The position numbers and the translations under genes were made by a program. From Clavibacter capsici (GTDB lineage: Bacteria > Actinomycetota > Actinomycetes > Actinomycetales > Microbacteriaceae), in the NCBI RefSeq assembly GCF_001280205.1, contig NZ_CP012573.1, forward strand, positions 2,728,001 through 2,792,000: 64,000 nt of DNA. Direction: 5' to 3'. This document shows, one piece after another, positions 23,416 to 30,935 of this stretch. How positions within the stretch are numbered: position 1 is the first letter of the stretch; every line of letters begins with the position of its first letter. The notes beneath the pieces were generated by a model. That model made no database searches. It was given only the letters and a program-made list of their open reading frames with translations, and was not told the origin of the DNA.

Positions 23416-24084
23416 ATGCCCGCCACCCGCACCCGCCCCGTCACGATCGCGCTCGTCGACGACTACGACGTGGTGCTGAAGGGCCTCGCCCACATGTTCG
23501 ACGACTACCGCGACCGCGTGGTCGTCGCCGAGATCGACGCGAACGCGGCCCTCTCCGACGAGATCGACATCGTGCTCTACGACTCGTTCGCGCAGCCGGA
23601 GTCCGACCACCACGAGATCGCGGAGCTGGTGCGGAACCCGCGCGCACGCCGCGTGGTCGTCTACACCTGGAACTTCCAGCCCGAGCTGATCGCCGACGCG
23701 CGCCGGCAGGGCGTGCAGGGCTACCTCTCGAAGGCGCTGCCGGCGAGGGAGCTCGTGGAGGCGCTCGAGCGGATCCACTCCGGCGAGGAGCTCTTCAACG
23801 AGGCGCCGCTGCGGGCCGCGAGCGCGCCGTCGCTCGACTGGCCGGGCAAGCGCGAGGGGATCACGGACCGCGAGTCGGAGATCCTCGCGCTCATCACGCA
23901 GGGCAAGAGCAACCAGGAGGTCGCGGCGCTCACGTACCTCTCCCCCAACACGGTGAAGAGCTACATCCGCTCGATCTACCGGAAGATCCAGGTGCAGAGC
24001 CGCACCCAGGCGGTCATCTGGGGCGTGGGGCACGGGTTCAGCCCGGACCACCACCGGATCGACCACTGGCTGGGTGGGCCGTAG
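23416..24084 (+). CDS. LuxR/NarL-family response-regulator-like transcription factor
   Basis: 222-aa protein with an N-terminal receiver-like domain (IALVDDYDVVLKG, with the acidic pair; LYDSFAQPE at the phospho-acceptor strand) and a C-terminal LuxR helix-turn-helix (GITDRESEILALITQGKSNQ, then YLSPNTVKSYIRSIYRKI). The strand-3 region reads LYDSF, so Asp is present. No sensor kinase is adjacent. ATG 23416 lacks a Shine-Dalgarno but GATCCT lies 6 nt before it, which fits leaderless expression. Its 3' end is duplicated at the far side of the adjacent AT-rich islet. Confidence 0.85.
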   Translation: MPATRTRPVTIALVDDYDVVLKGLAHMFDDYRDRVVVAEIDANAALSDEIDIVLYDSFAQPESDHHEIAELVRNPRARRVVVYTWNFQPELIADARRQGVQGYLSKALPARELVEALERIHSGEELFNEAPLRAASAPSLDWPGKREGITDRESEILALITQGKSNQEVAALTYLSPNTVKSYIRSIYRKIQVQSRTQAVIWGVGHGFSPDHHRIDHWLGGP

Positions 24085-24087
24085 GGG
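24055..24087 (+). repeat. Left copy of 33-bp direct repeat flanking islet 1 (LuxR gene 3' end)
   Basis: Covers the last codons and stop of the response-regulator gene (…RIDHWLGGP, stop, then GGGG). It matches 25754-25786 at 31 of 33 positions. Confidence 0.85.
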
Positions 24088-24210
24088 CGACATCTTTTGA
24101 TATGGGGACAAATACAGTCTTGCAAACTGCGCTTTTCTCTAGCGATGCCTACTGAGCGGCTCCCGAAATGTCGCACCTACATGGCACAGTGGATGCTCCT
24201 AGACCAAACG

Positions 24211-25110
24211 TTACGCCGTTCGCATTCCCCTACAAGGGCCTAGATCATCATCACAATTTATATCTGCCTTTATCAGCATCTCGCGGCTCATTTCGGGCGT
24301 TACTAGCTGGTCGACATCAAGCGTCATTCGAACTATTCGCGCTTGGGGATACCTCGGTCTACTTACAAGCGACACTTCATGAAGCACAGCATTTTTTACC
24401 TCCTGCGTTGCTACAACGGAGTAAGACGCTCCTTCTTCGTGATGGCACTCAACGGCTCCGCATATGGTACAGCCGAGTTCTTCGTTTCGTGATGCCGTCT
24501 TCTCATATGCGATGCCCGGTACATGCTCGCAGTCTTCGATCGCCTTGCCGCAGAACGTACATACAAATTCGCTAATCATTCCCACCGACAGGCCCCGACG
24601 GATATGTCCCAATCTGCATCGACAAGATGTCCAAAATCGATCTTGCTCAAATTCAATCTGACACCCAAAGAGGCCGCGTTTTAGAAACGAGGCATCATGA
24701 AGCGCCGCATGCGCCTCTTCTGCCCGCGGATGATCTTCAAGGTAGTTAAATGCTGCAAGCGCGGCTTTCTCTGACGCCATAACCGCTTCGTGCAACTCAG
24801 CTAGATCCTGGTCGCCTAGGCTGAGCCGCGCGTTGTACCTCTTCCACTCCTCGACCTTGAACAACTGGATGGCTCTAACGGCATTCTCATCATAATTTTC
24901 TGCGACGGCCTCTCGTTTCGGCAAAGAGGTCGGCTCCCGCCCAAGCACCATAACGGCATTATCGTAGGTTTCCTTGGCCTCACGCAGGGCATGAAGCCCA
25001 TTCGCCTCAAGCCAATCGCTCCTGGCAGGTCCCCCCGAAGGAGGAACGTCGCCGTAAGTCAGAATCTGAGCGGTAATCCGCATCCCATTATCAGAGGTTT
25101 CCTCACCCAT
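24211..25110 (-). CDS. Zinc-knuckle protein of unknown function, prohead-protease-like segment (islet 1)
   Basis: 299-aa protein in AT-richer DNA, not assigned to a named family. Residues about 170-235 hold Cys/His clusters: CRCRLGH, then CTFCG with DCEH, then CTICG with ECHH, suggesting two zinc sites. The following LHEVSLVSRPRYPQARI resembles the EVSLV…P…A strand pattern seen in caudoviral prohead proteases, so a phage ancestry is possible (inference). ATG 25110 overlaps the upstream gene's stop by 8 bp; an in-frame TTG at 25137 is an alternative. With its partner gene it forms a two-gene cassette. Confidence 0.65.
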   Translation of the reverse strand: MGEETSDNGMRITAQILTYGDVPPSGGPARSDWLEANGLHALREAKETYDNAVMVLGREPTSLPKREAVAENYDENAVRAIQLFKVEEWKRYNARLSLGDQDLAELHEAVMASEKAALAAFNYLEDHPRAEEAHAALHDASFLKRGLFGCQIEFEQDRFWTSCRCRLGHIRRGLSVGMISEFVCTFCGKAIEDCEHVPGIAYEKTASRNEELGCTICGAVECHHEEGASYSVVATQEVKNAVLHEVSLVSRPRYPQARIVRMTLDVDQLVTPEMSREMLIKADINCDDDLGPCRGMRTA

Positions 25111-25627
25111 GGTCTCTCGGTCTTCCCTCTTGCTCAAGCCTAAGAGCTTCTAGAACGTCTTTGCCAGCTCCCTTGATCTGAACACTGCGCTCGGTCTCGT
25201 TCTCGTATATAGATATCTCTAAAGGAAGATCCAACGCCTCCTCCGGCGTCCACCTCTGCAACTCAGCCCGTAGCAGGACGTACTGTTGCACAGTATGCAA
25301 TAGCCAGTCATTGGCCAAGGTAAGACAAGTCAGTCCCAGAGCCCAAATATCAGGGTCAATGCTGTACTCCTGTAAGAACTCCCGTTTTCCCTCCGGCAAG
25401 GAAAATTGCACAGGCAGGCCGGCGGCTCGTGCGGTCTTGGCCAGATACCTGACGTGCTCTGTGTAACGAGGCGCACCGGCTGAATCAGCGTCCTTGCTCC
25501 CATTGCGAGTCGGCAAGATATAGACTACGTTTTCCTCCAGGACGTCGGGAATGCTATTCGCCAATGGGAACCACTTGTCGTACTCAACACTTGCTACCAT
25601 GCGCAAATGGTACCGCGGATGTGACAC
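25103..25627 (-). CDS. Hypothetical protein, first gene of the islet 1 pair
   Basis: 174 aa from GTG 25627, or 165 aa from ATG 25600; neither has a clear RBS. No family recognised. It is soluble and mixed alpha/beta in character. A central Trp/Leu-rich segment (ALGLTCLTLANDWLLHTVQQ) could form a buried helix, and the C-terminus is Glu-rich. Codon use is clearly less GC-biased than in neighbouring core genes. The 8-bp overlap with the zinc-knuckle gene implies coupled translation and perhaps a complex. Confidence 0.6.
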   Translation of the reverse strand: MSHPRYHLRMVASVEYDKWFPLANSIPDVLEENVVYILPTRNGSKDADSAGAPRYTEHVRYLAKTARAAGLPVQFSLPEGKREFLQEYSIDPDIWALGLTCLTLANDWLLHTVQQYVLLRAELQRWTPEEALDLPLEISIYENETERSVQIKGAGKDVLEALRLEQEGRPRDHG

Positions 25628-25753
25628 AAGAGCGATGGCGGCGCCTGAAATAGCTGGCCCTATTGCAACTCATGCGGACGCCGTAGACCCCCAACTTGGT
25701 AGCCATGCGACTTAGACTGGTTCTGGCGCGTGATGTTCGCGACTCCTTCAGCG

Positions 25754-25786
25754 CGGATCGACAACTGGCTGGGCGGGCCGTAGGGG
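25754..25786 (+). repeat. Right copy of 33-bp direct repeat flanking islet 1
   Basis: Duplicate of the LuxR gene 3' end, encoding …RIDNWLGGP and its stop out of context, 22 bp before the LD-carboxypeptidase gene. Two substitutions separate it from 24055-24087. It marks the right edge of the low-GC islet. Confidence 0.85.
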
Positions 25787-25808: not shown

Positions 25809-26882
25809 ATGACCCGCATGATCCCCTCCACCTCCTCCCGGTTCCGCAAGTCCGTGCCCAAGGCGAAGGCGGGAGATCGGGTGGCCGTGCTGAGCCCCGC
25901 GTTCGCCGCGCCGGGCATGGCGCCCGAGGTGCACGAGCAGGCGATGCGGCGGCTGCAGGAGGCGACCGGGCTGATCCCCGTCGAGTACCCGACCACGCGA
26001 CGCCTCGGCGCGAGCGCCCGCGACCGCGCCGCCGACATCACGGCCGCGTTCGCCGACGACTCCATCCGCGCGATCGTCTCGACCATCGGCGGCGACGACC
26101 AGGTCACGGTGATCCCGCACGTCGACATCGAGGAGCTGGCCCGGAACCCCAAGCCCTTCCTCGGCTACAGCGACAACACGAACCTGCACAACCTGCTCGC
26201 GGGGCTCGGCATCCCCTCCTTCTACGGCGGATCCACGCAGGTCCACATCGGAGCCGGGCCCGGCATCGACGACGTGCACCTGCGGTCGCTGCGGGCGGCG
26301 CTGATCGAGGGCGGCACGCTCGAGATCACCGAGCCCGGGGAGTCGGAGGACTTCGGGATCGACTGGACGGATCCTCGCGCGCTCACCGAGCACGGCGAGC
26401 GGTCGGCGACCGAGCCGTGGAAGTGGGCCGGCCCCGCGACGACGGTGGAGGGGCCGACGTGGGGCGGCTGCATCGAGGTGATCGACCAGATCGCGATGGC
26501 CGGGCGCATGCCCGAGGTCGCGAAGCTCGAGGGCGGGATCCTGCTGCTGGAGACGAGCGAGGAGGTGCCGTCGGCCGACAGCGTGCGCCGCTGGGTGCGC
26601 GGGCTCGGCGAGCGCGGGATCCTCGACGTCGTCGCCGGCGTGCTCGTCGCCCGGCCGGTGACCACCGTGATGGGTGCGCCGGTGCCGCCGCCCGAGGAGC
26701 GCGCGCGGCTGCGGGCGGAGCAGCGCGACACCGTCATCGAGCAGGTCGCCCGCTACAACCCGGGCGCCGTGGTGTGCGTGGGCGTGCCGTTCGGGCACAC
26801 GCGTCCGCAGTGGATCCTGCCCCACGGCGGGACGGTGCGGCTCGACGGGGCGGCGCGGACGGTGCACGCGGACTACAGCTGA
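25809..26882 (+). CDS. S66-family LD-carboxypeptidase / MccF-like peptidase
   Basis: 357-aa serine peptidase. The nucleophile Ser lies in FLGYSDNTNLH, the catalytic Glu in the LLLETSEEVPSAD segment, and the His in GVPFGHTRPQWILPHG; the WGGCIEVID turn is also typical. Homologues trim tetrapeptides in peptidoglycan recycling (LdcA) or cleave microcin C-type aminoacyl nucleotides (MccF). The longer loop and GGDDQV motif lean towards the MccF-like branch. No signal peptide, so it is cytoplasmic. Its last 18 coding bases recur at 28014-28031 at the edge of islet 2. Confidence 0.9.
   Translation: MTRMIPSTSSRFRKSVPKAKAGDRVAVLSPAFAAPGMAPEVHEQAMRRLQEATGLIPVEYPTTRRLGASARDRAADITAAFADDSIRAIVSTIGGDDQVTVIPHVDIEELARNPKPFLGYSDNTNLHNLLAGLGIPSFYGGSTQVHIGAGPGIDDVHLRSLRAALIEGGTLEITEPGESEDFGIDWTDPRALTEHGERSATEPWKWAGPATTVEGPTWGGCIEVIDQIAMAGRMPEVAKLEGGILLLETSEEVPSADSVRRWVRGLGERGILDVVAGVLVARPVTTVMGAPVPPPEERARLRAEQRDTVIEQVARYNPGAVVCVGVPFGHTRPQWILPHGGTVRLDGAARTVHADYS
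26861..26878 (+). repeat. Original of 18-bp repeat (LD-carboxypeptidase 3' end)
   Basis: GGTGCACGCGGACTACAG encoding …VHADYS; an exact copy lies at 28014-28031. Confidence 0.85.
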
Positions 26883-26942: not shown

Positions 26943-27980
26943 GTGACGCTCCAGAACCACCCCGGCGATGCCGAGTTCCCCGTCCGGATGCGGAACCGGC
27001 ACGCCCGCGCCGCCGACGCCGCGCGGCGCTCGTCGCCCGCGGCCCTCCGGAAGCGCGCCCTGCTGATCACCGCGTGGTCGGCGCCCTTCGCCATCGTCGC
27101 GCTCGTGATCGCGGTGCCGCTCGCCGACCGGCAGGACATGACCGGGCCGCCCGTGGTGGCGGCGCTCGCGTTCATGCTCGGCGTCACGATCGTGAGCGTG
27201 GCGTTCCACCTCCGCGACGCCCGCGCGCCGCTGACGCACCAGCGCGCCTACATCGCCGCCGCCGGCCGCTCGGCGTTGACGCTCGAGCAGCAGCAGATCC
27301 TGGCGCTGGACGCGGTGAGCGACTTCTCCTACCGGCTCTGGAACTCCTCGCTCGCCTTCCAGCCCACCTTCGCCGAGCTCCCCGCGGAGCATCGCACCCG
27401 GCATGCCGACGGCGCCGAGGGGACGGGTCGCTGGGCGGCCCTGCCCATCGCGTCGCTCGCCCAGCAGCGCGCGGCCCTCGACTCCCAGTTCCGGATCGCG
27501 TCGCGCGTCGACCTCGAGCTGTTCGTCGCGGATGCGCTCGCGCAGGGCCTCATCTCGGAGCGGTTCGCGGAGGTCGCGGCCGGCCCGGACGCCGAGCGGA
27601 TGCTCTCGCGGATGGCCGCGCTCACCGGGCGGAGCGAGTTCGAGATCATCGAGCGCACCCGGCCCACCGGCGACCGTCCGCCCGTGCTGCTGCTCGCGGG
27701 CGACAGCGAGCGGACGATCGGCGCGATCCGGTTCGCGTACCTCGCGGGCTATCTCCCGGCGGACGACGCGTGGACGCTCCTCCGCCAGGTGGCCGCGCGC
27801 GTGTTCGCCGCGTACGACGGCTGGGACGCGTACTGGGCGGACGTCGCGCTCACCCTCGCCTTCCGCACCGACAGCCTGGAGACCGTGCAGGCGGCGCAGC
27901 GCGTGCACGAGGGCCTGCGCACATCGGGCTGGCCGGCGGCGAAGGTGCCGTGGCCGGGGACGGACGCGCGGGTCGGCTGA
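26943..27980 (+). CDS. Membrane-anchored DUF1266-like protein
   Basis: 345-aa protein. Two hydrophobic helices near the N-terminus (about residues 38-60 and 67-86) are followed by a cytoplasmic alpha-helical region. The C-terminal ~150 residues (IRFAYLAGYLPADDAW through AYDGWDAYWADVALTLAFRT) resemble DUF1266, a family of unknown function. GTG 26943 is inferred from the TAGGCT box 6 nt upstream, giving a leaderless mRNA. In an ancestral layout its stop would have been only a few bp from the converging GT9 stop, before islet 2 inserted. Confidence 0.7.
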   Translation: MTLQNHPGDAEFPVRMRNRHARAADAARRSSPAALRKRALLITAWSAPFAIVALVIAVPLADRQDMTGPPVVAALAFMLGVTIVSVAFHLRDARAPLTHQRAYIAAAGRSALTLEQQQILALDAVSDFSYRLWNSSLAFQPTFAELPAEHRTRHADGAEGTGRWAALPIASLAQQRAALDSQFRIASRVDLELFVADALAQGLISERFAEVAAGPDAERMLSRMAALTGRSEFEIIERTRPTGDRPPVLLLAGDSERTIGAIRFAYLAGYLPADDAWTLLRQVAARVFAAYDGWDAYWADVALTLAFRTDSLETVQAAQRVHEGLRTSGWPAAKVPWPGTDARVG

Positions 27981-27985
27981 CCCGG

Positions 27986-28015
27986 CCGGATCAGTCGCGC
28001 GGCTCGCCCGTGAGG
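27986..28015 (+). repeat. Copy of the GT9 gene 3' end at the left edge of islet 2
   Basis: 30 nt identical to 29878-29907 (minus-strand end of the GT9 gene including its stop). It abuts, with a shared GG, the LD-carboxypeptidase-end copy. Confidence 0.85.
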
Positions 28016-28031
28016 TGCACGCGGACTACAG
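28014..28031 (+). repeat. Copy of the LD-carboxypeptidase 3' end inside islet 2
   Basis: 18 nt identical to 26861-26878. A single T following it turns the original TACAGC into TACAGT, a possible -10 for the next gene. Confidence 0.8.
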
Positions 28032-28040
28032 TTGGCGGCC

Positions 28041-28547
28041 GTGGAGCACTCGAACCTGCCAAGTGGCGCGACTTTTCGCGGCAACCTGTTGTCCAGATTG
28101 ACACTCGTTGAGCGCTCTCAACCAGAGGGTGCGTACATAGTCGACGGTATCCTTTTCGAGCAGGACTTCACTCGCTTGACAACAACAGCCGGACGCGACG
28201 TTTCTGTACCCGCGTGGTCGACGCCTGAAGAGACCCATCGAGCGATTAGCACGGTGATGCACCTGGCGCCCCTGAACCCCAATTCGTGGACAAGCTTCCC
28301 TCCGAAGATGACACCGTGGGCTATATGGCTAACGCTTCACTACGACCTCGCTTCAGCCGAGCGAGATCTCGATCTCAACGTGGCGGGGCTGCACCTTCGC
28401 GAAATTCGCAAGCACGGACAAACGGCACAAGTTGTAACCGCTTTGGGCGTGGATTGCTATCACCACACGGTGCCCCTGAACGAACAGCCACTAGCAGTAA
28501 CGGTTGACCTCGCTTTCGAGGTGATGCGACAGCGGCGAGGTAGATAG
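28041..28547 (+). CDS. Hypothetical protein (islet 2, gene 1)
   Basis: 168 aa from GTG 28041; an in-frame TTG (28032) is an alternative. No family recognised and no signal peptide or membrane helix. Composition is acidic-neutral with two His-rich spots. TACAGT at 28027-28032, derived from a duplicated gene end, sits 8 nt before the GTG and may be its -10. Codon use is less GC-biased than in core genes. A 14-bp perfect palindrome follows 18 bp after the stop. Confidence 0.5.
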   Translation: MEHSNLPSGATFRGNLLSRLTLVERSQPEGAYIVDGILFEQDFTRLTTTAGRDVSVPAWSTPEETHRAISTVMHLAPLNPNSWTSFPPKMTPWAIWLTLHYDLASAERDLDLNVAGLHLREIRKHGQTAQVVTALGVDCYHHTVPLNEQPLAVTVDLAFEVMRQRRGR

Positions 28548-28564
28548 TCCGGTGGCCCACCAGG

Positions 28565-28578
28565 CCATAGGCCTATGG
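28565..28578. terminator. Perfect 14-bp palindrome CCATAGGCCTATGG in islet 2
   Basis: Lies just after the gene 1 stop and before the converging gene 2 stop. It has no loop, so it could be a protein-binding or recombination site rather than a terminator. Confidence 0.35.
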
Positions 28579-28618
28579 AGTCCTCACATCTTATCTCGGC
28601 CACGACCCCAATAGCTGT

Positions 28619-29014
28619 TTAGTCAAGCCACCTGAATCTGCGGCCACCATGGCCCTCGCGACACTTTCGCCAACTCAACAGACGTCGAATCTCTTCCGAA
28701 AGCAGTACATAACCCACACACCAATGGCCCCATTTGGTCAGAAAACCAAGATATTGTCGGCCGAAATGCTCATATATTAATATCTCGCATTCGCAACTCA
28801 TGCGTTCTACTCGGATGCCGGTGCCGTCACTCAGAACCGGAAACGGCGCAAGGAAGAAACTGGGTCGCGCACCGACTATGGGGTCCGGGTACCGGGTGCC
28901 AGCATCCACCGGAGTAAGAGCTTTGTCATCGACTTCTCGCCTCAACGTTCGCGTCCTGGCGGAGCGGCGGAGGAACTCATCAATGCCTGTGGACAAAACT
29001 CGTTCTCGATTCAT
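28619..29014 (-). CDS. Hypothetical protein (islet 2, gene 2)
   Basis: 131 aa, basic, with no family recognised. A short aromatic stretch (YEHFGRQYLGFLTKWGHWCVGY) could pack as beta-strands and the tail is Arg-rich. AGGA lies about 12 nt before the ATG, a weak RBS. Lower GC than core genes. It converges with gene 1 and is divergent from the secreted-protein gene. Overlapping plus-strand frames are poorer candidates. Existence is moderately supported. Confidence 0.4.
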   Translation of the reverse strand: MNRERVLSTGIDEFLRRSARTRTLRREVDDKALTPVDAGTRYPDPIVGARPSFFLAPFPVLSDGTGIRVERMSCECEILIYEHFGRQYLGFLTKWGHWCVGYVLLSEEIRRLLSWRKCREGHGGRRFRWLD

Positions 29015-29096
29015 ATTGCTGAGTATCCTGCCAGCGTTCTCGCATACCCCCTCCAGCGAATGACTGGTTCATGCAACACGCACGAAAGGCACCAAT

Positions 29097-29636
29097 ATGC
29101 CAAGGAAGCTCACCATCATTGCGAACCTCGCCATTGCGATGGCCGTCACAGCAGGTGCACCAACTGCCGCCTACGCATCCACGGCCGCTTCGAACCAAAA
29201 TGCCCCCCATCACTACGTCGTAGTAACAGCAGCTATGCCCAAGAATATGGTCGACGCAGCATTGCGACATGAGGTCATTTCACATCCCGACGAGGCCAGC
29301 CAGGTCAGTACTCGCTGGCAGGACTACATGGACCGGCTCGTCGTCATGAGAATTGCGGCACAGTCAAAGATCTACTTCAAGCATAACTTGAACTACACAG
29401 CAGTTCGCGTCGCGACCCAACAGCCTGACACTGGTCGCCAGGAGTACGGATCCACGTGGGAGTACATCACCACTTTTGAAAAAATAGAAGAGAACGGGGA
29501 AATCTCTGACTCTCAGCAGGTCAGGACACTAGTGGACTTTCGGAATGTGGACGGCGACCCACAGGGGGTAGTCACGTCGTATTGCCTCGGAATTGACGGA
29601 GCATGTCCCTCTTGGATAAATGAAACCGTAGGCTAG
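29097..29636 (+). CDS. Secreted protein of unknown function (islet 2, gene 3)
   Basis: 179 aa with a clear signal peptide: MPRKL, a hydrophobic core to about residue 25, and cleavage near AYAS-TAAS. The mature part is mixed and soluble, with two Cys near the C-terminus (SYCLGIDGACPSW) able to form a disulphide. No domain recognised. AAAGG precedes the ATG by 7 nt, the same style of RBS as used by the solute-binding-protein gene at 53797, so the donor was probably an actinobacterium. Lower GC than neighbours. Confidence 0.65.
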   Translation: MPRKLTIIANLAIAMAVTAGAPTAAYASTAASNQNAPHHYVVVTAAMPKNMVDAALRHEVISHPDEASQVSTRWQDYMDRLVVMRIAAQSKIYFKHNLNYTAVRVATQQPDTGRQEYGSTWEYITTFEKIEENGEISDSQQVRTLVDFRNVDGDPQGVVTSYCLGIDGACPSWINETVG

Positions 29637-29877
29637 GACTGTCTCCCCTAAAGACCTTGGTCGTTAGGGCAGATCCGACCCAGCACGACTTTGATACACC
29701 TTCGCACACGCTGGCGCCACCCGCTCACCCCGCTTCACGACCCTGACCGAGTAATTACAAAGCCACGCACGTCGCACGATGCTGCCCGGGGCGGCAGCGA
29801 AAGCGCGATCTGCGCGGCCTGTCGACAGCTGGCGACTGACCTGAGCGATACATGATGCCGTCGCCACACACCGACCG
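29637..29877. other. Right end of islet 2, no gene seen
   Basis: About 240 bp of AT-richer DNA with no convincing ORF. It ends at the GT9 3'-end repeat. Confidence 0.4.
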
Positions 29878-29907
29878 CCGGATCAGTCGCGCGGCTCGCC
29901 CGTGAGG
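29878..29907 (-). repeat. Original of the 30-bp repeat (GT9 gene 3' end)
   Basis: Covers the last codons (…GEPRD) and stop of the GT9 gene; identical to 27986-28015. Confidence 0.85.
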
Positions 29908-30935
29908 GGGCGGATCACGCGGTGGCCGTCGAGACCGCGCGCAGCCTCGAGGACGTGGGCCGGGGTGATCGCGAGGAGCGCCGGATCCGGGACGCTCGAG
30001 AACGTGTCGCCGAGGCGCTGCGACGCGTCGGTCAGCACGATGTGCGGGCCGGAGGCGGGCGGGCCCCACTCCTCGGGCGGGGCCGGGCCGAAGATCACGA
30101 CCGACGGGATGCCGTAGGCGGTCGCGAGGTGGGCGGCGCCGGTGTCGGCGGAGATCACGAGGTCGGCGGCCGCGATGATCCCGGCGAAGGCGTCGAGGGC
30201 CAGCTCGCCCGCGAGCACGGTCTCCGTGGGCATGCCGGCGAGGGCGGCGACCTCGAGCGCGCGGTCGCGCTCTTTGTCGGATCCGGTGAAGACGACCGTG
30301 CGGCCCTCGTCGGCGAGCGCGCGGGCGACCTCGGCGAAGCGGTCGACGGGCCACTGGCGGGATCCGTAGGCGGCGCCCACGTGGATCACGACGGCGTGCT
30401 CGGCGACGGGCGGCGCGTCGGGCACGAGGATGCCGACGTCCTCGGGATCCGCGGGCATGCCGTGCCAGGAGACGAGCCGGGCCCAGCGGTAGCGCTCGAG
30501 GACGTGGTCCTCCCACGCGGGGCCGTCGGCGGCGGGCATCCCGTCGAGCTCGGGCGCCGCGTGGCCGAGCGTGCGGTGCGCGCGCAGCTCGTGGAGGAGG
30601 GTGCGGCTCTCGATGCCCGCGCCGTGCAGGTTGATCGCGAGGTCGACCGTGCCGGGCTCGCGCGCGATCGGGTGGTCGAAGCCCTGCTGCGGGAGGTGCT
30701 CGTCGACCATGCCGAGGAGCTTGACGACCGGCGCGAGCCAGCCGGTGGTGGCGAGCGCGATGCGGGCGTCGGGGTGCGCGCGGCGGATGGCGCGGAGCGC
30801 GGGGACGGCCACGAGGATGTCGCCGAGCTTGATGGCGCGGAGGACGAGGATCTCTTCCGGGTGCGGGGCGTCGTCGGTGCCGGTCGCGGGGCGGGCGTCG
30901 TCGGGGAGGGCGGCGGGGTCGCCGGGGGTCTGCAT
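29883..30935 (-). CDS. Glycosyltransferase family 9 (heptosyltransferase-like)
   Basis: 350-aa GT-B enzyme. The N-terminal domain begins ILVLRAIKLGDILVAVPALRAIR, the typical acceptor-side loop of ADP-heptose:LPS heptosyltransferases. The C-terminal nucleotide-sugar domain contains VIHVGAAYGSRQWP and ISADTGAAHLATAYGIPSVVIFGP, where D-x-G-x-x-H is the GT9 hallmark. There is no Shine-Dalgarno; CAGGCT lies 7 nt before the ATG. The acceptor in a Gram-positive is unknown. Two other GT9 modules occur in the window. Confidence 0.88.
   Translation of the reverse strand: MQTPGDPAALPDDARPATGTDDAPHPEEILVLRAIKLGDILVAVPALRAIRRAHPDARIALATTGWLAPVVKLLGMVDEHLPQQGFDHPIAREPGTVDLAINLHGAGIESRTLLHELRAHRTLGHAAPELDGMPAADGPAWEDHVLERYRWARLVSWHGMPADPEDVGILVPDAPPVAEHAVVIHVGAAYGSRQWPVDRFAEVARALADEGRTVVFTGSDKERDRALEVAALAGMPTETVLAGELALDAFAGIIAAADLVISADTGAAHLATAYGIPSVVIFGPAPPEEWGPPASGPHIVLTDASQRLGDTFSSVPDPALLAITPAHVLEAARGLDGHRVIRPLTGEPRD

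What the first reader, a model, noticed from the sequence alone, without database searches (positions are those of the whole stretch)
27986..29907. Islet 2 carries abutting copies of two different gene ends (GT9 and LD-carboxypeptidase)
Left edge: 30 bp identical to the GT9 3' end (real one at 29878-29907), joined through a shared GG to 18 bp identical to the LD-carboxypeptidase 3' end (real one at 26861-26878). The islet's left flank therefore looks taken from an arrangement LD-carboxypeptidase–islet–GT9, then inserted beside DUF1266–GT9. This suggests that islet 2 and the DUF1266 gene were alternatives at one site and were combined by microhomology joining, or that the islet moved from one gene end to another.
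Basis: partly seen in the sequence, partly recalled or inferred. Interest (0 to 1): 0.74.

Follow-up and report, generated by a model that had tools for sequence, protein, structure and literature searches.

The report
Two alternative inserts fused together
At one variable spot in this Clavibacter chromosome, two inserts that related species carry separately have been joined end to end, and short scraps of neighbouring gene ends at the seam show how the pieces were put together.

Summary
In detail: the islet's left edge is 31 bp identical to the GT9 3' end, sharing GG with 18 bp identical to the LD-carboxypeptidase (LD-CP) 3' end, and neither copy is a common sequence in the genome. The genus is Clavibacter. 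In 18 species genomes the LD-CP|GT9 gap is a variable slot: empty in 4, DUF1266 alone in 4, islet gene E alone in 1, other contents or mixtures in 9. All 8 E copies lie in this slot. In one relative E directly follows LD-CP, and the window's seam aligns to that junction without a gap. So the window holds a DUF1266 allele, still ending in old GT9 sequence, fused to an LD-CP-E-S allele. Three relatives carry other fusions, with gene-end scraps of different lengths. S resembles the C-terminal tip of a 2322-aa PA14/RHS protein, and E-like genes follow S-like genes in two other genera: S and E look like a toxin and its immunity protein (function untested). Islet 1 and a ychF site in the same genome show gene-end scraps too. 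Most likely mechanism: recombination anchored in a conserved flanking gene, with illegitimate joining at the other end. That is a known kind of event, here with an unusually legible record.

The parts
25809..26882 (+). LD-carboxypeptidase (peptidase S66), left border of the slot; its real 3' end matched by the seam is 26861-26878
   Evidence: Pfam PF02016 and PF17676; conserved in 18 of 18 genus genomes
26943..27980 (+). DUF1266 protein gene, the first slot allele (D)
   Evidence: Pfam PF06889; present in the slot in 11 of 18 genomes
27985..28015 (+). old GT9 3' end left at the right edge of the DUF1266 allele, 31 bp identical to 29877-29907
   Evidence: same DUF1266-GT9 junction in L038
28014..28015 (.). 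GG shared by both gene ends: the seam (2-bp microhomology)
28014..28031 (+). LD-CP 3' end, 18 bp, left edge of the E-S allele
   Evidence: colinear without a gap with the LD-CP-E1 junction of L046, 93 of 120 identical
28041..28547 (+). gene E, candidate immunity protein (GTG start where relatives have MEHSNLP; the mechanical ORF begins at TTG 28032)
   Evidence: all 8 genus copies lie in this slot; E-like gene next to S-like gene in G237 and G381
28548..29096 (.). spacer between E and S; holds a 131-aa minus-strand ORF (28619-29014) without family support
   Evidence: poorly conserved against L046
29097..29636 (+). gene S, 179-aa protein with a signal-peptide-like N terminus (by reading), candidate toxin
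   Evidence: 37% identity over 109 aa to the C-terminal tip of a 2322-aa PA14/RHS protein
29877..29907 (-). real GT9 3' end (second copy of the 31-bp repeat)
29883..30935 (-). GT9 family glycosyltransferase, right border of the slot
   Evidence: Pfam PF01075; found next to the slot in 17 of 17 relatives

Best explanation
The gap between LD-CP and GT9 is a variable slot in Clavibacter. Two slot alleles, LD-CP-DUF1266-GT9 and LD-CP-E-S-GT9, were fused in tandem. The seam joins a point 31 bp inside the GT9 end of the first allele to a point 18 bp inside the LD-CP end of the second, over a shared GG. Shown by sequence: the composite seam, its uniqueness, both component arrangements in relatives, and independent fusions. 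Inferred: incoming DNA paired by homologous recombination in GT9 and was joined illegitimately at its other end. GT9 stayed whole because the donor supplied its end; the old end stayed behind as a scrap. Repetition of such events stacks modules between a conserved gene and older scraps. Also inferred: the cargo is a toxin (S) with its immunity gene (E), which gives a reason to keep stacked or orphan E genes.
For: Uniqueness and exactness of both gene-end pieces. Slot contents in 18 of 18 genomes. Seam and E colinear, without a gap, with the LD-CP-E1 junction in L046. LD-CP-end scraps in front of E in L031 (102 columns, 79%) and L046 (113 columns, 82%), and a GT9-end scrap (108 columns, 81%) followed by DUF1266 in L038. 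Gene-end scraps also at islet 1 (33 bp, 94%) and a two-step ladder at ychF (211 bp 88%, 105 bp 75%). Ku is present, so end joining is available. S-like and E-like genes adjacent in two other genera and in L038.
Against: Only one genome per species, so no event was caught in progress. Two bases of microhomology are weak evidence for a specific route. A tandem duplication followed by deletion, or integration of a circle by the 31-bp repeat, gives the same product. The competence domain found also occurs in 10 of 14 control genomes, including E. coli, so it says little. In 11 relatives with an insert of at least 100 bp at the LuxR|LD-CP site, none has a LuxR-end copy. The islet's S lacks an immunity gene directly downstream. 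No enzyme activity was shown, and fold searches gave no clear match.
Confidence: 0.72

Rival explanations
1. Site-specific integration: the islet is a passive element that a tyrosine recombinase supplied elsewhere inserts at gene 3' ends, leaving a gene-end direct repeat (31 bp here, 33 bp at islet 1).
For: Both AT-rich islets of the window have direct repeats of similar length that cover a gene's stop codon. The ychF ladder looks like tandem accretion.
Against: Repeats at the same gene differ in length: GT9 31 bp in the window and 108 columns in L038; LD-CP 18, 102 and 113; ychF 105, 131 and 211. The islet itself carries an LD-CP end piece. None of the slot proteins scanned matched a recombinase family.
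Confidence: 0.13
2. Tandem duplication of the whole LD-CP-slot-GT9 region with two alleles (a merodiploid), followed by deletion from GT9 of the first copy to LD-CP of the second.
For: Predicts exactly the observed order and a short-homology deletion joint.
Against: Needs two steps and no intermediate was seen among 18 genomes. It cannot be separated from the favoured route by the product alone.
Confidence: 0.12
3. The two short matches are chance or generic gene-end motifs.
For: None found.
Against: Uniqueness, random test with maximum 16, gap-free homology with a relative's LD-CP-E1 junction.
Confidence: 0.01

Closest known systems
Displacement of T6SS effector-immunity modules and orphan immunity arrays in Vibrio cholerae (Kirchberger et al. 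2017, PMC5361080; passages seen)
   Same: New toxin/immunity modules added at a conserved border, older immunity genes kept, remnants of gene ends left behind; homology-facilitated illegitimate recombination proposed there as the mechanism.
   Different: Here the borders are unrelated core genes (LD-CP, GT9), not a secretion-system gene. The host is an actinobacterium, and the scraps are ends of the flanking core genes.
Homology-facilitated illegitimate recombination (Prudhomme 2002, de Vries 2002, Meier 2003: seen only as reference-list entries; PMC2884548 passages; PMC3240628 listing)
   Same: One homologous anchor plus one joint with little homology.
   Different: Described experimentally in transformation or conjugation; here inferred from sequence, with a short duplication where that process often deletes (the latter recalled).
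Polymorphic toxin systems and polyimmunity loci (Zhang et al. 2012, PMC3482391; passages seen)
   Same: S-like domain as the tip of long RHS-type proteins and as a stand-alone cassette; adjacent small ORFs; orphan immunity-like genes.
   Different: No Pfam family for S or E. In the window E lies upstream of S, with 549 bp between them.
Genomic islands at gene 3' ends with direct repeats (general knowledge)
   Same: Intact gene, islet, displaced gene-end copy.
   Different: No recombinase found in the slot, and repeat length varies at the same gene.

Membership tests
Homology-facilitated illegitimate recombination product | homologous anchor in a conserved flank on one side | tested here: met
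   GT9 intact and aligned over its length to relatives beside the slot, about 89-96% identity; that it served as anchor is inferred
Homology-facilitated illegitimate recombination product | other joint with only a few bases of shared sequence | tested here: met
   GG only, 28014-28015
Homology-facilitated illegitimate recombination product | event observed as donor to recipient transfer | not testable with these tools
   one genome per species; no experiment
Polymorphic toxin system | toxin domain at the C-terminal tip of long secreted multidomain proteins | tested here: met
   S matches the tip of a 2322-aa PA14/RHS protein and of 756- and 638-aa proteins in G545
Polymorphic toxin system | immunity gene directly beside the toxin gene | tested here: inconclusive
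   met in L038, G237 and G381; in the window E is upstream with a 549-bp spacer
Polymorphic toxin system | toxicity neutralised by the partner | not testable with these tools
   needs experiment
Known toxin fold (BECR ribonuclease type) | fold match | tested here: inconclusive
Recombinase-driven island at a gene 3' end | recombinase gene in the element | tested here: not met
   no such family among the window slot proteins scanned; a recombinase acting in trans is not excluded
Recombinase-driven island at a gene 3' end | constant attachment core at one gene | tested here: not met
   GT9 31 vs 108; LD-CP 18, 102, 113; ychF 105, 131, 211; decay of older copies could shorten some
Known anti-phage defence system | PADLOC model match | tested here: not met
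   0 of 5 proteins at E 0.01

The most novel reading that the evidence does not exclude
In Clavibacter, recombinase-free cargo islets (toxin/immunity pairs, restriction genes) accrete at the 3' ends of conserved genes by a one-sided recombination ratchet. Each insertion keeps the core gene whole and pushes its old end outward as a scrap, so the chromosome holds a readable stratigraphy of past insertions (two steps at ychF, a two-allele seam here). S and E would be a new toxin and immunity family.
Probability: 0.4. Interest if true: 0.65.

Novelty: new variant of a known kind. Interest (0 to 1): 0.52.

Why it matters
The seam is a base-level record of how two alternative inserts became one allele, and its parts still exist separately in named relatives. 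It suggests that small antagonism and defence modules can enter and pile up in actinobacterial genomes without integrases, using conserved genes as anchors. It also points to an unclassified pair of protein families (S and E) that probably work in competition between bacteria. If the gene-end scraps prove general, they would let the order of past insertions be read from a single genome.

Tried and rejected

Pfam scans of 13 S-family members found 7 families, each in a single member and none shared. For E, 4 of 8 members gave a weak match to INCENP_ARK-bind (best E 0.015), taken as chance. PADLOC found nothing.

A class-wide search with the E profile also gave three short matches (about 45-50 aa, E 3e-4 to 6e-4, inside 555-556-aa frames in G397, G567 and G606) that I did not interpret. 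An S-like gene outside the slot in G013 (28%) was not pursued.

Tree of flanking genes: 18 rows, 3 of 15 inner branches well supported in the joined tree. Fewest changes: 13 for the full slot state (10 states, minimum 9) and 5 for presence of E. No shuffled control was run, so I draw no statistical claim from it.

Gene-end repeats as a general rule: of 5 low-GC runs of at least 800 bp in 464 kb of the own genome (4 distinct loci, two runs being neighbours), 3 have a strong flanking repeat. The first control used a stricter cut-off than the islets (0 of 300 draws, some of them skipped). Repeated over 400 tested segments: 2 with E at or below 1e-9, 1 with at least 30 bp at 85% or more, and 57 with at least 18 bp at 85% or more. 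So short repeats are uninformative and long ones rare. Against generality: 0 of 11 relatives with an insert of at least 100 bp at the LuxR|LD-CP site has a LuxR-end copy, and extra ychF-end copies occur in 2 of 18 genomes.

Literature: listings showed no paper on this locus; I saw listings and abstract beginnings only, so absence from print is not claimed.

Full report
Observation. 27985-28015 equals 29877-29907 (31 bp), and 28014-28031 equals 26861-26878 (18 bp); they overlap in GG. In the own genome the 18-mer has 2 exact places and 7 with three mismatches, none between; the 30-mer has only its 2 exact places within three mismatches. Of 20,000 random 80-mers none shared more than 16 consecutive bases with either gene end.

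Where it is. LD-CP is a peptidase S66 protein, the right-hand neighbour a GT9 glycosyltransferase, and the middle gene carries a DUF1266 domain.

A variable slot. LD-CP and GT9 flank the same gap in 18 of 18 genomes searched. Contents (D = DUF1266, l and g = scraps of the LD-CP and GT9 ends): empty, 36-46 bp up to the GT9 match, in L032, L033, L035, L044; D alone in L034, L037, L039, L045; D plus other genes in L036, L042; E alone in L047; E-D in L040, L043; S-l-E-D plus another gene in L031; E1(broken)-S-l-E2 in L046; S(broken)-E-g-D in L038; D-g-l-E-S in the window; unrelated genes in L041. That is 4+4+2+1+2+1+1+1+1+1 = 18. All 8 matches to E in the 18 genomes lie in this slot. Of 5 matches to S, 4 lie here and 1, weak, lies elsewhere in G013.

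The seam. DUF1266 ends against GT9 in L038 as it does in the window, so the left 31 bp are the old GT9 end of a DUF1266 allele. The right part, from the LD-CP end into E, aligns without a gap to L046, where E1 directly follows the intact LD-CP (93 of 120 identical). Blocks matching E and S continue to the end of S, with a poorly conserved spacer between. The window is therefore allele D-GT9 joined to allele LD-CP-E-S-GT9 over GG.

Other fusions. L031 and L046 carry LD-CP-end scraps (102 columns at 79%, 113 at 82%) between S and E. L038 carries a GT9-end scrap (108 columns at 81%) between E and D. Lengths at the same gene differ (GT9 31 and 108; LD-CP 18, 102, 113), which argues against a fixed attachment site, though decay of older copies could contribute. 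L031 and L046 share similar scraps and may descend from one event.

The same trace elsewhere in this genome. Islet 1, between LuxR and LD-CP, has a 33-bp repeat (94%) of the LuxR 3' end, stop codon included. In 20 sampled stretches plus the window (464 kb) there were 5 low-GC runs of at least 800 bp, 2 of them neighbours; 3 have strong flanking repeats. The third is at ychF (Pfam YchF-GTPase_C): modules with N6_Mtase and Methylase_S genes and with a 495-aa protein of no family are separated and bordered by ychF-end copies of 211 bp (88%) and 105 bp (75%). One relative, G010, has a further ychF-end copy (131 bp, 91%); 16 of 18 genomes have none. In 400 control segments 2 had repeats of comparable significance. 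At the LuxR site 0 of 11 relatives with inserts of at least 100 bp show such a copy, so the trace is not universal.

The cargo. S is 179 aa with a signal-like start. It matches the last 109 aa of a 2322-aa PA14/RHS protein in G071 (37%) and the ends of 756- and 638-aa proteins in G545. S-like genes were found in 6 of 299 family genomes and 9 of 394 class genomes. E-like genes lie next to S-like genes in G237 (with 17; the S-like gene has a stop) and in G381, and next to the broken S in L038. The other S-like genes that I read are followed by small ORFs of other sequence (by reading, not tested). Nothing in Pfam, NCBIfam or PADLOC names S or E. Structure prediction was fair for E (mean pLDDT 83.2) and poor for S (53.9), with no clear fold match. 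Toxin and immunity are the best reading, not a demonstrated function.

Mechanism. The most economical account is one-sided: homologous pairing in a conserved border gene and illegitimate joining at the other end, as proposed for Vibrio immunity arrays (PMC5361080, passages) and discussed for small variable segments (PMC2884548, passages). Ku is present. The competence domain is present too, but also in 10 of 14 control genomes. A circle integrating through the 31-bp repeat, or duplication followed by deletion, would leave the same product and is not excluded.

Verdict. A real, informative seam between two alternative inserts. The process is of a known kind; the setting (core-gene ends in an actinobacterium) and the S/E families appear new to the libraries searched.

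Noticed in passing
24055-24087 and 25754-25786: Islet 1 (about 24088-25753, AT-rich) is flanked by a 33-bp, 94% direct repeat of the LuxR-type regulator's 3' end. No homologue of the islet was found in the fetched relatives.
   Followed up: partly
L189:10427-16005 (own genome C1 2310427-2316005): Two-step ladder of ychF-end copies bordering AT-rich modules, one with type I restriction-modification genes.
   Followed up: partly
between LuxR and LD-CP in relatives: A second variable slot: about 1.3-1.4 kb of GC-rich sequence in five relatives (L032, L034, L041, L042, L043), shorter forms in others, nearly empty in some, and AT-rich in L031 and the window.
   Followed up: partly
L041:2255-4124: In G011 the slot holds unrelated AT-rich genes, one with a DUF4365 domain.
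   Followed up: no
L141:8138-10709: In G237 a secreted DUF4258 protein gene lies near the S-like remnant and the E-like gene, suggesting a cluster of such modules.
   Followed up: no
28619-29014: 131-aa minus-strand ORF between E and S; no family at a meaningful level; real gene or not unknown.
   Followed up: no
26943-27980: DUF1266 genes come in two kinds: the window and L038 are 88% identical, the other nine about 73-75% to the window.
   Followed up: no
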